Part shown: positions 21,206-56,039 of the stretch, piece by piece | Position numbering within the stretch: position 1 is the stretch's first letter | Layout: each line of letters opens with the position of its first letter | Source of the DNA: an uncultured bacterium | GTDB lineage: Bacteria > Cyanobacteriota > Vampirovibrionia > Gastranaerophilales > Gastranaerophilaceae | Assembly (NCBI GenBank): GCA_949296355.1 | Contig: CASFPS010000016.1 | Span: forward strand, 1-56,039 | Direction: 5' to 3' | DNA length: 56,039 bases | Notes under the pieces: generated by a model | What the model was told of the DNA's origin: nothing | The model's database searches: none | The model's input: only the letters and a program-made list of their open reading frames with translations | Position numbers and translations under genes: made by a program

Positions 21206-22324
21206 ATGGCGACATCAACAATCACAATTAACACAAACTTGGCGTCATTAACCTGCCAATCATACCTTAGAGGTGCAACAGCAGGTATGAATACAGCAAT
21301 GGAGAGATTATCAACCGGCTTCCGTATCAACTCCGCAGCTGATGACGCAGCAGGATACGCTGTATCCGCAGGAATGGAAGCTAAAATTAACGGTTATGAC
21401 ATCATTGAAACCAACGCTCAAATGGGGTTAGATATGTTAACCACAATGGAAGGCGTTCTCGGTATCATTAATGATTATTTACAAAGAATCAGAGACTTGA
21501 CCATGCAGGCAGCAAACGGTACTTACGGCTCTGCTTCTTTAGACGCTATCAACCTTGAAGTTCAGCAAAGAATGGATGAAATCGGTCGTCTTTGTGAAAT
21601 CACAGACTTTAACGATACCTATCTTTTAGACGGTTCAAGACAGGATGATATCAACCTGCAGGTAGGTTTGTATTCAGACAAAAGATGCGTTATCAAGATG
21701 GATCAATTCCTCTTTGACAGCGCAAAAGCAACTGTTATTTTCGGATTTAAAGCTAATAATGATAATATAACAGAACAAAGACCGGGCTATATTGATTTAA
21801 CCTATTCAGCTGATGAAAATCAATATGAATACAGAGCAAGAGTTCTTGATGAAAACGGAAAACCGGTACTCGACGGTAACGGAGATTATACATACCTTCC
21901 GGGTTCTTACCAGTCTGCATTAACCGCTGCTATGGCAGAAAACGGAACAGTTGTAGAAGGTGTAATTGAAGTATCAAAGCCAGGTACAGGCGGAGCAAAG
22001 ACAGTTTCAATTACAAATATGTGTAATGCAATCTACAGAAACGACAGTTCTGCACGTGAATTCATCACATTCATTGACGAGGCTATCGATAACGTATCTT
22101 TAAGATCTACAAAAATCGGTGCTTATATGAACAGATTGAATGCTGCAATTGATTCAACCGATGTTCAAAGAGAAAACTTGATTGAGGCTAACTCTACAAT
22201 CAAAGACGCTGACGTTGCAACAGAATCTTCAAATTATATCAAATACCAGATTCTGCAGCAGTCTACAGCAACACTGTTAGCAACAGCTAACCAGATGCCG
22301 TCTATTGCTTTGAACTTAATCTAA
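21206..22324 (+). CDS. fliC: flagellin
   Basis: The 372-residue protein has the conserved flagellin ends. The N-terminal D0/D1 domain covers about 1-145 (SLTCQSYLRGATAGMNTAMERLSTGFRINSAADDAAGYAVS, then LTTMEGVLGIINDYLQRIRDLTMQAANG). The C-terminal D1/D0 domain covers about 280-372 (STKIGAYMNRLNAAI, ANSTIKDADVATESSNYIK, and the end ATANQMPSIALNLI). The variable middle is short. AAAGGAA precedes the ATG, and a near-perfect sigma-28 promoter lies upstream. Flagellins are exported unfolded through the flagellar type III apparatus, so the cell should encode that apparatus elsewhere; no other classical flagellar gene is in this window. Confidence 0.95.
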   Translation: MATSTITINTNLASLTCQSYLRGATAGMNTAMERLSTGFRINSAADDAAGYAVSAGMEAKINGYDIIETNAQMGLDMLTTMEGVLGIINDYLQRIRDLTMQAANGTYGSASLDAINLEVQQRMDEIGRLCEITDFNDTYLLDGSRQDDINLQVGLYSDKRCVIKMDQFLFDSAKATVIFGFKANNDNITEQRPGYIDLTYSADENQYEYRARVLDENGKPVLDGNGDYTYLPGSYQSALTAAMAENGTVVEGVIEVSKPGTGGAKTVSITNMCNAIYRNDSSAREFITFIDEAIDNVSLRSTKIGAYMNRLNAAIDSTDVQRENLIEANSTIKDADVATESSNYIKYQILQQSTATLLATANQMPSIALNLI

Positions 22325-24373: not shown

Positions 24374-25162
24374 ATGGCAGAGAATGAAGAATTGCAAGAG
24401 GCAGGTACAGAAGGAGAAGCGCGTCAGAAGATTTTAGTTGCTGACGATGAAGCAAGTATCAGAAGAATTCTGGAAACCCGTCTTAAGATGGTCGGATACG
24501 ACGTAGTTACGGCAGAAGATGGTGAAGAAGCCGTAGAAGTCTTTAATAAGACTAATCCTGATTTGGTAGTATTAGACGTTATGATGCCAAAGATGGACGG
24601 CTATGGCGTAACAAGAGAAATCCGCAGAACATCTGATGTTCCTATAATTATACTTACAGCTCTGGGTGATGTTTCTGAAAGAATTACAGGACTTGAGCTC
24701 GGTGCTGATGATTATGTAATCAAACCTTTCAGCCCGAAAGAACTTGAAGCACGCGTAAAAGCAGTATTAAGAAGAACAATTAGTAAAGATGTTATTATAC
24801 CGGCTTCTTCATCTGCTGCAGGCGCTTCTGCCGGAGGCAAAAATAATAAGAATATTATTACAACCGGTGCTATAAAGATTGATACAGCAAGACGTCAGGT
24901 TTACAGAAAAGGCGAACGCATTCGTCTGACAGGTATGGAATTCAGCCTGCTGGAACTTCTTGTAAACAATTCAGGTCAGGCATATTCAAGAAATGAAATA
25001 CTGCAGCATGTATGGTCATATCCTGCAGATCATAGAATTGATACCAGAGTTGTTGATGTTCATATTTCAAGACTTCGTTCAAAATTGGAAGCAGATCCGA
25101 CGAATCCGGAATTGATATTAACCGCAAGAGGTATCGGATATATGTTCCAGAGAATAAATTAA
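24374..25162 (+). CDS. rpaB: OmpR-family response regulator, RpaB/Ycf27 type
   Basis: The 262-residue protein has a 17-residue acidic N-terminal extension. A receiver domain follows with ILVADDEASIRRILETRLK, the phospho-accepting Asp in LVVLDVMMPKMDGYG, and GLELGADDYVIKPFSPKELEARV. A Gly/Ser/Asn linker leads to a winged-helix effector domain (GMEFSLLELLVNNSGQAYSR, VVDVHISRLRSKLE, ARGIGYMF). The receiver is strikingly like cyanobacterial RpaB, an essential regulator that binds HLR1 sites in response to redox and light stress. No kinase gene adjoins it. Exact HLR1-type direct repeats occur in promoters elsewhere in this window. AGGTGG precedes the ATG. Confidence 0.92.
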   Translation: MAENEELQEAGTEGEARQKILVADDEASIRRILETRLKMVGYDVVTAEDGEEAVEVFNKTNPDLVVLDVMMPKMDGYGVTREIRRTSDVPIIILTALGDVSERITGLELGADDYVIKPFSPKELEARVKAVLRRTISKDVIIPASSSAAGASAGGKNNKNIITTGAIKIDTARRQVYRKGERIRLTGMEFSLLELLVNNSGQAYSRNEILQHVWSYPADHRIDTRVVDVHISRLRSKLEADPTNPELILTARGIGYMFQRIN

Positions 25163-41806: not shown

Positions 41807-41814
41807 ATTTACAT

Positions 41815-41834
41815 CTTACATATATATAAAGTAT
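41815..41834 (-). promoter_or_regulatory. ATACTTTATA-type core promoter (minus strand)
   Basis: Minus strand ATACTTTATATATATGTAAG. It matches the cores upstream of 49992 (49925-49944) and 55846 (55803-55822) at 18 of 20 positions or more. Each has an HLR1-like repeat 35-37 bases upstream. Confidence 0.55.
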
Positions 41835-41870
41835 ATAAAACTTTCCTAATTTCACAACTTGTTAAAATCG

Positions 41871-41885
41871 TTACAAAACTTTACA
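41871..41885. promoter_or_regulatory. exact HLR1-type direct repeat, site A
   Basis: TTACA-N5-TTACA, within GTTACAAAACTTTACATA, a full HLR1 consensus match. It is 36 bases upstream of the minus-strand core promoter at 41815-41834. Confidence 0.55.
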
Positions 41886-41899
41886 TAGCTTCGCATTTT

Positions 41900-49812: not shown

Positions 49813-49872
49813 CCCGGTCTCTCCCGATAGCTTATTTATATAATGATACAACAAAAGCTTTCAATAATAAAT

Positions 49873-49944
49873 TGTAAACTTTTGTTAAGAATTCCTTTAA
49901 AAATATCAATTTTACTAAATACAAATACTTTATAAATATGTAAG
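49873..49944 (+). promoter_or_regulatory. two-part promoter: HLR1-like repeat plus ATACTTTATA core
   Basis: TGTAA-N5-TGTTA (49873-49887; one mismatch to the repeat), 37 bases, then ATACTTTATAAATATGTAAG (49925-49944), 47 bases before the 49992 start. Same order and spacing as at 41815-41885 and 55753-55822. Confidence 0.55.
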
Positions 49945-49991
49945 GTTAAAAAGGTTATTCTAAATACCTGAAAATTTAGTAGGAGGTCATT

Positions 49992-50891
49992 ATGTCATAT
50001 CCGTTTGGCATAACAGGAATAGGTTACAATCCATATATGAGCGGTCTGGGGATGCTGGGGTTATCCGGCGGCGGTACATACAGTTCATATTATAATCCGG
50101 CATTTATGGGATATGGCGGAATGGGAATGATGGGGATGTACCCTGCTTATATGCAGCAGATGAATCAGACATATCAAAATATGGAGAAGTCTCAATTAAA
50201 TCATGCCGGAGCAATGCATGAACTCTTGCTGCAGAATAAAACCAATGCATTTATAGCAGAAGACAGGGCTTTATTTGAAAAAACAATGGAAGACAGAGGA
50301 CTGCAAACATCTATTGTAAACCTTGCGGAAAAAATCAGAGAAGGTGATTCAGACGGTGTTTGTGAAGAATATGATAAAATAAAAGCTACAATATATCAGA
50401 AGTACAACTCATATTTTAAAGAAAATACCAATTTAGATCCTGCAGAAAGTGTAAGGAAAGTAATTGAAGACATGTATGCTGCAATTATCTCTAAAAAATC
50501 AGGAGAAACCGTTAGTCTTAGAAATGATATAAAAAGATTTGGCGAAACTGCTTTTATGCACGGATTTAACGAAAAATTCTTCGGTAAAAAAGATTATCAT
50601 AATAAATATACAGAAGAAACTATAAATTATGTATTCGGTACAAGAATTGATAATAAGGGCGGTAAAGACAGAATGGAAAAAATCGGCGGCGGTGCGGCAA
50701 GAGTTGCGGAAGGTGTAACATCTGCAGCAGCAGGTTATGGAATCGGTATAGGTCTTGCTGCATTAGGAAAAGTCATAAATCCGTTTGGAATTTGCAAAAA
50801 ATTAGGTTTAAGCGGAACTCATAAATTAGGTAAATGGGCAGCAGTGGCAGCTCTTGGTGCAGATGTTATATGGCAGTTGACAAGAGATTAA
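49992..50891 (+). CDS. hypothetical protein with Gly/Met/Tyr-rich N-terminus and hydrophobic C-terminus
   Basis: The 299-residue protein is not recognised. Residues 1-55 are a low-complexity Gly/Met/Tyr stretch (MSYPFGITGIGYNPYMSG, then NPAFMGYGGMGMMGMYPAYM). About 55-220 is helical and polar with TNAFIAEDRALFEKTMEDRGLQ. About 232-295 contains a Gly/Ala-rich hydrophobic hairpin (VAEGVTSAAAGYGIGIGLAALGKV... KWAAVAALGADVIW) that could insert in a membrane, like glycine-zipper proteins. There is no signal peptide; the AGGAGG ribosome site is strong. Its promoter belongs to the shared two-part type, so it is probably co-regulated with the 55846 gene. Confidence 0.65.
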   Translation: MSYPFGITGIGYNPYMSGLGMLGLSGGGTYSSYYNPAFMGYGGMGMMGMYPAYMQQMNQTYQNMEKSQLNHAGAMHELLLQNKTNAFIAEDRALFEKTMEDRGLQTSIVNLAEKIREGDSDGVCEEYDKIKATIYQKYNSYFKENTNLDPAESVRKVIEDMYAAIISKKSGETVSLRNDIKRFGETAFMHGFNEKFFGKKDYHNKYTEETINYVFGTRIDNKGGKDRMEKIGGGAARVAEGVTSAAAGYGIGIGLAALGKVINPFGICKKLGLSGTHKLGKWAAVAALGADVIWQLTRD

Positions 50892-55675: not shown

Positions 55676-55752
55676 AATCTCCCCAGCAATAATAAAATTA
55701 TATCAAAAACATTAACTTTTATTTCAAAATAATGAAAAAAATAAACTCAATT

Positions 55753-55822
55753 TTACATTTCTTAACAAAAGAGGTTAAAAAAGGCAATTTTTTTAAAATG
55801 AAATACTTTATATATACATAAG
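55753..55822 (+). promoter_or_regulatory. two-part promoter: HLR1-like repeat plus ATACTTTATA core
   Basis: TTACA-N5-TAACA (55753-55767, one mismatch), 35 bases, then ATACTTTATATATACATAAG (55803-55822), 23 bases before the start of the last gene. Confidence 0.55.
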
Positions 55823-55845
55823 AGATATTTAAGAGAGGACAAAAG

Positions 55846-56039
55846 ATGTTATTCACTACAGAAACAATTTCAAACGAAGAAATCAAAACATTAGACAACT
55901 TCTTTAACGAGTTTGAAAATGTTGAAACCGCTGCTGTAGAAGAAACAGAATCACCGGTTTCTAAATACATCACCTCTCTTGTAAGCTCTTGCTACGCAAA
56001 ATCTGTTAACGATATTGCTAACACAAAAATCGGTAACAA
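55846..56039 (+). CDS. hypothetical protein, cut by the window end
   Basis: Sixty-four codons are visible from the ATG at 55846, with AGAGAGGAC upstream. The part seen is acidic and polar: MLFTTETISNEEIKTLDNFF, then ENVETAAVEETESPVSKYIT and SLVSSCYAKSVNDIANTKIGN. There is no signal peptide or known motif. The frame runs off the window. It is listed because of its ribosome site and because its promoter belongs to the shared two-part type found upstream of 49992. Confidence 0.6.
   Translation, partial: MLFTTETISNEEIKTLDNFFNEFENVETAAVEETESPVSKYITSLVSSCYAKSVNDIANTKIGN

What the first reader, a model, noticed from the sequence alone, without database searches (positions are those of the whole stretch)
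49992..50891. Gly/Met/Tyr-rich protein with a glycine-zipper-like tail under the shared promoter
It combines a disordered G/M/Y head, a helical body and a hydrophobic Gly/Ala hairpin, without a signal peptide. Together with the 55846 gene it may form a regulon of the HLR1/ATACTTTATA promoter. The mix resembles secreted pore-forming or phase-separating proteins, but no family is recognised.
Basis: partly seen in the sequence, partly recalled or inferred. Interest (0 to 1): 0.5.

Follow-up and report, generated by a model that had tools for sequence, protein, structure and literature searches.

The report
Conserved gut-cyanobacterial protein under RpaB-type promoter
A conserved protein of unknown function in gut-dwelling, non-photosynthetic relatives of cyanobacteria sits under a promoter shared with many other, mostly unknown genes, and the promoter often carries the binding motif of a regulator that in true cyanobacteria controls the response to light.

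Summary
The ORF 49992-50891 is real: a 299-aa, single-copy protein found in 31 of 34 genomes of its genus and, by profile, in 42 more of the same family. The genome is a Candidatus Gastranaerophilales-type MAG, so non-photosynthetic Cyanobacteria. The Gly/Met/Tyr head, helical body and lack of a signal peptide are confirmed. The 'glycine zipper' exceeds composition in only 1 of 29 close and 8 of 20 distant homologues.

The shared promoter is the real find. A model of its core finds 53 sites in this genome. HLR1, the RpaB site of cyanobacteria, stands before 21 of the 28 sites used for the model (at most 3 in 200 shuffles), always 52-57 bp upstream, but before only 6 of the 25 others. The window encodes RpaB (24374-25162), whose role in these bacteria was left open in 2013.

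Most downstream proteins scanned are unknown; 0 of 38 have a hydrophobic N-terminus, against 21 of 81 controls. I infer, without proof, an RpaB-controlled set of Sec-independent envelope or exported proteins. Pore formation and phase separation are not supported.

The parts
49992..50891 (+). the gene: 299-aa protein with Gly/Met/Tyr head (about residues 1-50), helical body (about 51-235) and Gly/Ala-rich tail (about 230-299)
   Evidence: ORF and translation; 31 of 34 genus genomes; AlphaFold2
49871..49888 (-). HLR1-type element ATTGTAAACTTTTGTTAA, 1 mismatch to KTTACAWWN2KTTACAWW on the minus strand
   Evidence: consensus from PMC13421787
49906..49911 (+). TCAATT, the '-35-like' box of the shared core
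   Evidence: alignment of 27 sites; position checked
49926..49946 (+). TACTTTATAAATATGTAAGGT, shared core; ACTTTAT..GTAAGGT is kept in all 34 distinct upstream regions of close homologues
49981..49986 (+). ribosome-binding site AGGAGG
   Evidence: sequence
55752..55769 (+). HLR1-type element TTTACATTTCTTAACAAA (1 mismatch) of the second promoter
55777..55827 (+). second copy of the promoter core, E 4.6e-10
55846..56037 (+). second gene under the promoter, cut by the contig end; a near-identical 5' end lies at the edge of contig C34
41809..41859 (-). third copy of the promoter core (E 4.0e-9), followed by no ORF within 120 bp but by a hairpin with a run of T (by eye): candidate small RNA
41870..41887 (+). 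perfect HLR1 element of that promoter
24374..25162 (+). RpaB response regulator (NF045944, 355.2 bits against a cut-off of 330), the presumed HLR1-binding protein

Best explanation
The gene is a core member of a large promoter-defined gene set in gut Cyanobacteria without photosynthesis. RpaB binds HLR1 about 55 bp upstream of a fixed promoter core (GCAATT or TGAAAT, about 16 bp, then ATACTTTATATATATGTAAG) and activates transcription. The product is made without a Sec signal: its disordered Gly/Met/Tyr head, or part of it, serves as an export or targeting segment, the helical body is the folded unit, and the Gly/Ala-rich tail lies against or in a membrane. It most likely leaves the cytoplasm through the flagellar-type (type III) exporter that these bacteria carry and works at the cell envelope. 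Shown: gene, conservation, promoter core, HLR1 enrichment and position, presence of RpaB. Inferred: RpaB binding, activation, export route, membrane contact.
For: Core in 34 of 34 distinct upstream regions of close homologues and HLR1 (2 or fewer mismatches) in 33 of 34, against 8% in shuffles. In 20 of the 42 distant homologues a core of the same shape in 20 of 20 (2.4% in shuffles), HLR1 with 2 or fewer mismatches in 11 of 20. In this genome 53 core sites, 27 of 53 with HLR1 against at most 5 in 200 dinucleotide shuffles; the 21 of 28 among the model's own sites all start 52-57 bp before the core. The HLR1 region was not part of the model. HLR1 with up to 1 mismatch: 135 in the genome against 40 for the reversed pattern. 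RpaB over its curated cut-off. 0 of 38 proteins under the core have a hydrophobic N-terminus against 21 of 81 others, and their N-termini are rich in N, S, T, H, W and poor in K, I, R. One (L140) joins an aromatic head to a glucosaminidase domain without a Sec signal. FlhA, FlhB and FliH families found by Pfam; FliP, FliQ and FliR recognised by eye only.
Against: No expression or binding data. Outside the sites used for the model, HLR1 with 2 or fewer mismatches is before only 6 of 25 core sites (shuffles: mean 0.7, at most 4), and only 2 of these 6 at the usual offset; L140 belongs to this weaker class. HLR1 also stands before genes without this core. The gene does not lie near the export genes found. 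Flagellins are present (7 matches in this genome), so the exporter is already explained by flagella. The tail is only weakly hydrophobic in this protein. The gene was not found in 3 of 34 genus genomes. One site (L131) precedes a protein that by eye has a Sec signal although it passed the hydropathy cut.
Confidence: 0.38

Rival explanations
1. Same regulation, but the protein is not exported: it is an internal membrane-associated scaffold, with the low-complexity head making weak self-contacts and the tail lying on the inner membrane.
For: No signal peptide; not beside the export genes found; low-complexity head; hydrophobic tail in 16 of 20 distant relatives.
Against: A protein under the same core with a similar aromatic head, a peptidoglycan-hydrolase domain and no signal peptide (L140) needs a way out, which favours export for heads of this kind; the link is loose, as L140 is in the class of sites with weak HLR1.
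Confidence: 0.33
2. The promoter family is real, but RpaB is not its regulator: an alternative sigma factor or another regulator reads the core, and the HLR1-like repeats belong to it or serve only some sites.
For: 26 of 53 sites lack HLR1 at 2 or fewer mismatches, 19 of them among the 25 sites outside the model. The core is unusual and could be a sigma signature; the genome has 8 Sigma70_r2 hits and 4 OmpR-type C-terminal domains.
Against: Where present, the repeat fits the published RpaB consensus at 0-1 mismatch in 17 of 53 sites. RpaB is over its curated cut-off; two of the three other OmpR regulators were scanned and are not, the third was not scanned.
Confidence: 0.22
3. The protein is a type III translocator-like or holin-like pore former, inserting its Gly/Ala tail as a hairpin.
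For: Size, no Sec signal, helical body, Gly/Ala tail; zipper-like spacing beyond composition in 8 of 20 distant homologues.
Against: Zipper spacing exceeds composition in 1 of 29 close homologues and the tail is weakly hydrophobic here. No family match and no Foldseek match at E<=0.001. Not in an export locus.
Confidence: 0.1
4. Low-complexity ORF without function; conservation and promoter are chance.
For: Low-complexity head; no known domain.
Against: 31 of 34 genus genomes and 42 genomes of other genera of the family; the 20 distant ones read keep the architecture and the promoter core.
Confidence: 0.01

Closest known systems
RpaB/HLR1 regulon of photosynthetic cyanobacteria (PMC13421787 and PMC6331805, passages seen)
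   Same: Same regulator family (NF045944 over cut-off), same 18-bp direct repeat in either orientation, and a place upstream of the promoter that would roughly fit the published activating position (-66 to -45) if transcription starts about 12 bp after the A of ACTTTAT (not mapped).
   Different: Targets found here are mostly unknown proteins and short transcripts, and the repeat is joined to a long fixed promoter core.
RpaA, RpaB and NblS of Melainabacteria (PMC3787301 and PMC4040986, passages seen)
   Same: The same gene in the same group of bacteria.
   Different: The passages seen report that the regulators are present, and the first says they 'may have another function'; they give no target genes or sites.
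FlgJ-type peptidoglycan hydrolases exported by the flagellar machine (recalled)
   Same: L140 has a glucosaminidase domain (PF01832), recalled to be the FlgJ domain, without a Sec signal.
   Different: L140 carries an aromatic-rich head and sits under this core; the finding's protein has no such domain.
Type III translocators such as the SctE/SctB classes (recalled)
   Same: Similar size, helical body, no Sec signal, hydrophobic segment (recalled traits).
   Different: No family or clear fold match, no export locus beside it, weak tail hydrophobicity in this member.

Membership tests
RpaB/HLR1 regulon | HLR1 direct repeat KTTACAWW-N2-KTTACAWW in the promoter | tested here: met
   1 mismatch here; 33 of 34 distinct upstream regions of close homologues with 2 or fewer mismatches against 8% in shuffles; for the wider gene set 27 of 53 sites, 21 of 28 and 6 of 25 by class
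RpaB/HLR1 regulon | an RpaB orthologue in the genome | tested here: met
   window 24374-25162, NF045944 355.2 bits, cut-off 330
RpaB/HLR1 regulon | HLR1 at -66 to -45 from the transcription start for activation | tested here: inconclusive
   offset from the core is nearly fixed (28 of 37 matches with 3 or fewer mismatches start 52-57 bp before it), but no transcription start is mapped
RpaB/HLR1 regulon | binding by RpaB and response to it | not testable with these tools
   needs purified protein or a mutant
Type III translocator or effector | no Sec signal | tested here: met
   0 of 29 close homologues reach a 19-residue mean hydropathy of 1.6 in the first 40 residues
Type III translocator or effector | gene linked to the export apparatus | tested here: not met
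   neighbours are lptB-like and lptF/G-like genes on one side and tRNA-Gln and a nadD-like gene on the other (protein names by eye); the export genes found lie on contigs C4, C30, C15
Type III translocator or effector | export abolished without the exporter | not testable with these tools
   needs a mutant
Glycine-zipper membrane protein | G-x3-G-x3-G-type spacing beyond composition | tested here: inconclusive
   1 of 29 close homologues and 8 of 20 distant ones at p<=0.05 against shuffles
Known protein families (Pfam, NCBIfam, PHROGs, PADLOC) | a match over the curated cut-off (Pfam, NCBIfam) or any match (PHROGs, PADLOC) | tested here: not met
   among 29 homologues one member has one Pfam hit at E 0.0063

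The most novel reading that the evidence does not exclude
In gut Cyanobacteria without photosynthesis, the regulator known for light and redox control, RpaB, runs a large regulon of Sec-independent exported proteins, envelope enzymes and small RNAs. The low-complexity Gly/Met/aromatic heads are the export signals, read by the flagellar-type exporter (possibly helped by its second FlhA or the stand-alone FlhA C-domain), and the protein of the finding is a conserved structural member of the set.
Probability: 0.18. Interest if true: 0.85.

Novelty: new variant of a known kind. Interest (0 to 1): 0.6.

Why it matters
RpaB and NblS were reported in these non-photosynthetic bacteria in 2013, with the remark that they may have another function (PMC3787301, passage seen). 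A list of 53 promoter sites, 27 of them with an HLR1 motif, gives named candidate targets, so the question of what the regulator does apart from light control becomes testable. The same list picks out dozens of uncharacterised genes of a gut bacterium that may be expressed together.

Tried and rejected
Families, PDB sequences and folds gave nothing for the protein: Pfam, NCBIfam, PHROGs, PADLOC, PDB by sequence and by profile (best E 0.85 and 0.82), Pfam on 29 members, Foldseek on both models with 0 matches at E<=0.001. VIA-align on the body put a helical segment of polynucleotide phosphorylase first (Z 8.8, 2.7 A, 75 residues); the tool warns that Z below about 13 may mean only a common arrangement in helical proteins, so I make nothing of it.

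I tried to link the gene to an exporter by presence and absence. It did not discriminate: FHIPEP was found in 56 of 57 genomes and flagellin in 55 of 57, so flagella alone explain the exporter. L047 and L074 were tested as paralogues and rejected (BLASTP E 0.15 and 4.2).

Limits. The counts per genome come from a model trained on this genome: 15-44 sites at E<=1e-5 in each of 34 genus genomes, 0-5 in the 23 others; distant homologues have a slightly different core, so the drop outside the genus is partly the model. The N-terminus test left out 15 of 53 sites: L136, L138, L150 and L112 (doubtful frame or start), L121 (under 58 aa) and the 10 without an ORF call; its 81 controls come from the window and loci L095-L097 only. 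In one search two loci with two sites each were read at the wrong site; one search repeats the count with 53 distinct sites and gives the same totals. The 37 weaker matches (of 90) were not examined. The zipper and head measures are simple composition tests of my own; no disorder, signal-peptide or transmembrane predictor was at hand.

Literature: Gastranaerophilales with 'type III secretion' gave 2 papers (listing only), with 'regulon' 0; Melainabacteria with 'flagella' 47 papers, 15 listed; RpaB with HLR1 12 papers; RpaB with Melainabacteria 4 papers and with Vampirovibrionia 1. Of those 4 I saw passages of 3 and only the listing of PMC5877343. That no RpaB targets are in print for this group rests on these searches of one open-access library.

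Full report
What it is. The window is one whole contig (G000:C16) of a 2.09-Mb genome in 41 contigs. The nearest named records are Candidatus Gastranaerophilales MAGs, one of them 99% identical over the protein. The ORF at 49992-50891 starts with ATG behind AGGAGG and codes for 299 residues. A search with this protein finds one match in its own genome and strong matches (E 1.7e-22 or better) in 31 of 34 genomes of the genus, own genome included; among the 23 other genomes, 22 of other families of the order and one of another order of the class, the best is E 0.0024. With a profile of 29 close homologues, 54 of 192 genomes of the order match at E<=0.01: 12 in the genus and 42 in other genera of the same family; all 54 are in that family. 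Many of the 42 are weak (E down to 0.004), but the 20 I fetched all encode 230-335 aa proteins with a Gly/Met/aromatic head and most have a hydrophobic tail.

Anatomy. In the 29 close homologues the first 60 residues are 53% Gly, Met or Tyr and 3% charged, the body 16% Gly, Met or Tyr. None of the 29 has a signal-like N-terminus by hydropathy. The tail is Gly/Ala-rich. Among the close homologues it is only moderately hydrophobic (9 of 29 reach a 19-residue mean of 1.6) and its Gly spacing is not beyond shuffles in 28 of 29; in 20 distant homologues 16 are hydrophobic by this measure and 8 have zipper spacing beyond composition. Sequence, profile and fold searches found no relative of known function.

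The promoter. In 38 homologous loci there are 34 distinct upstream regions (3 duplicates and 1 short one left out). All 34 hold ACTTTAT..GTAAGGT, and 33 of 34 hold an HLR1 repeat with 2 or fewer mismatches, where shuffles give 8%. Of 20 distant homologues, all 20 keep a core of this shape (2.4% in shuffles), 11 hold HLR1 at this level; several others have two half-sites at a different spacing (by eye).

The core was then used to search the genome. The pattern ACTTTATNNNNATGTAAGGT gives 16 matches with up to 2 mismatches against 1 for the reversed pattern; the shorter ACTTTATATATATGTAAG with up to 3 mismatches gives 32 against 15. A sequence-only model of 52 positions, built from 27 sites, gives 53 sites at E<=0.0023 and 90 at E<=10. 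Of the 53, 28 are the model's own sites and one near copy; 25 are others, two of which one search had listed. The HLR1 region was not part of the model. In it, 27 of 53 sites show HLR1 with 2 or fewer mismatches and 17 with 0 or 1; 200 dinucleotide shuffles never gave more than 5 sites. Split by class, it is 21 of 28 (shuffles at most 3) and 6 of 25 (shuffles mean 0.7, at most 4); the 21 all start 52-57 bp before the A of ACTTTAT, of the 6 only two do. A window 300 to 248 bp upstream gave none of 53 below 3 mismatches. So HLR1 belongs firmly to the strong sites, this gene's among them, and only loosely to the rest. Nor is it restricted to this core: 135 matches with up to 1 mismatch in the genome against 40 for the reversed pattern, and 12 of 82 genes of the window and three loci have one with 2 or fewer mismatches within 180 bp upstream, this gene and three genes facing one of the window's sites among them.

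The regulator. The consensus KTTACAWW-N2-KTTACAWW and the activating position -66 to -45 are from PMC13421787 (passages). The window gene 24374-25162 is RpaB by NCBIfam (355.2 bits, cut-off 330); two other OmpR-type regulators score 213 and 199 on that model, and a third was not scanned. That RpaA, RpaB and NblS occur in these bacteria was reported in 2013 and 2014, with the remark that they may have another function (PMC3787301, PMC4040986; passages). Binding of RpaB to these sites is an inference from sequence.

The other genes. Of the 53 sites, 43 are followed by an ORF start 18-73 bp after the A of ACTTTAT; two more stop at a contig edge just after a start codon, and eight have no ORF within 120 bp, some of them followed by a hairpin with a run of T (by eye). 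Twenty of these proteins were scanned with Pfam, six of them cut by the end of the stretch held; two pass a curated cut-off: an HD domain (L137) and a glucosaminidase domain behind an aromatic head (L140). Ten proteins scanned with NCBIfam, nine of them behind these sites, gave one weak hit, L149 with TIGR02594 at 28 bits against 70.6. In 38 proteins none has a hydrophobic N-terminus by the hydropathy cut, against 21 of 81 controls, though L131 looks to have a Sec signal by eye; N, S, T, H, Q and W are enriched near the N-terminus while K, I, R, V and C are depleted. Five of 38 have more Gly, Met, Tyr, Phe and Trp in the first 70 residues (0.40-0.53: L113, L123, L127, L139, L140) than any of the 81 controls (mean 0.19, maximum 0.37); L123 is this gene. 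The start of L047 looks like that of this protein, but BLASTP does not make them homologues (E 0.15).

Export. The genome has FlhA, FlhB and FliH families by Pfam, a second full-length FHIPEP and a stand-alone FHIPEP C-domain; FHIPEP is found in 56 of 57 genomes examined. Flagellin is present in 55 of 57, so the exporter is explained by flagella, and nothing shows that it carries this protein. The argument for export is indirect: hardly any Sec signals in the group, and in one member a peptidoglycan-hydrolase domain that would be of no use in the cytoplasm.

Verdict. The promoter grows into a large set of sites, and for the strong half a plausible known regulator; the pore and phase-separation ideas find no support. 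The mechanism (RpaB activates; the protein acts Sec-independently at the envelope) is my best reading at 0.38 overall, with the regulatory half much better supported than the export half.

Noticed in passing
   Followed up: partly
L095:8845-10935 (+), G000:C30: Second full-length FHIPEP (696 aa) with a FliH-family gene before it; a copy of the promoter core with HLR1 (2 mismatches) and no ORF lies just behind it at C30:13968-14018.
   Followed up: partly
41809-41859 (-) and loci L109, L122, L135: Promoter copies followed within about 150 bp by a hairpin and a run of T (by eye) and no ORF: candidate small RNAs. Rfam finds only tRNAs in the window at gathering scores.
   Followed up: partly
55752-56039; L090; L054, L055: Pairs of near-identical promoter plus gene starts at contig edges (C16 and C34; C20 and C36): multi-copy genes that seem to break the assembly.
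   Followed up: no
L136, L138, L143, L150: Four sites precede genes with a similar N-terminus in one frame (INPVLYQNELGKF-like): a multi-copy family with a conserved leader.
   Followed up: no
L140:623-1660 (+), G000:C2: Aromatic-rich head joined to a glucosaminidase domain (54.1 bits, cut-off 30.2) with no Sec signal, under the same core.
   Followed up: partly
24374-25162 (+): The rpaB gene itself has an HLR1-like repeat (2 mismatches) within 180 bp upstream: possible self-control.
   Followed up: no
21206-22324 (+): Flagellin gene in the window (PF00669 match at 21227-21637); 7 flagellin matches in this genome.
   Followed up: no
L083:1542-1895 (+), G000:C8: 118-aa Ser/Gly/Cys-rich small protein under the promoter with a perfect HLR1.
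   Followed up: no
L131, G000:C1:18371: One site precedes a protein that by eye has a Sec signal, an exception to the rest.
   Followed up: no
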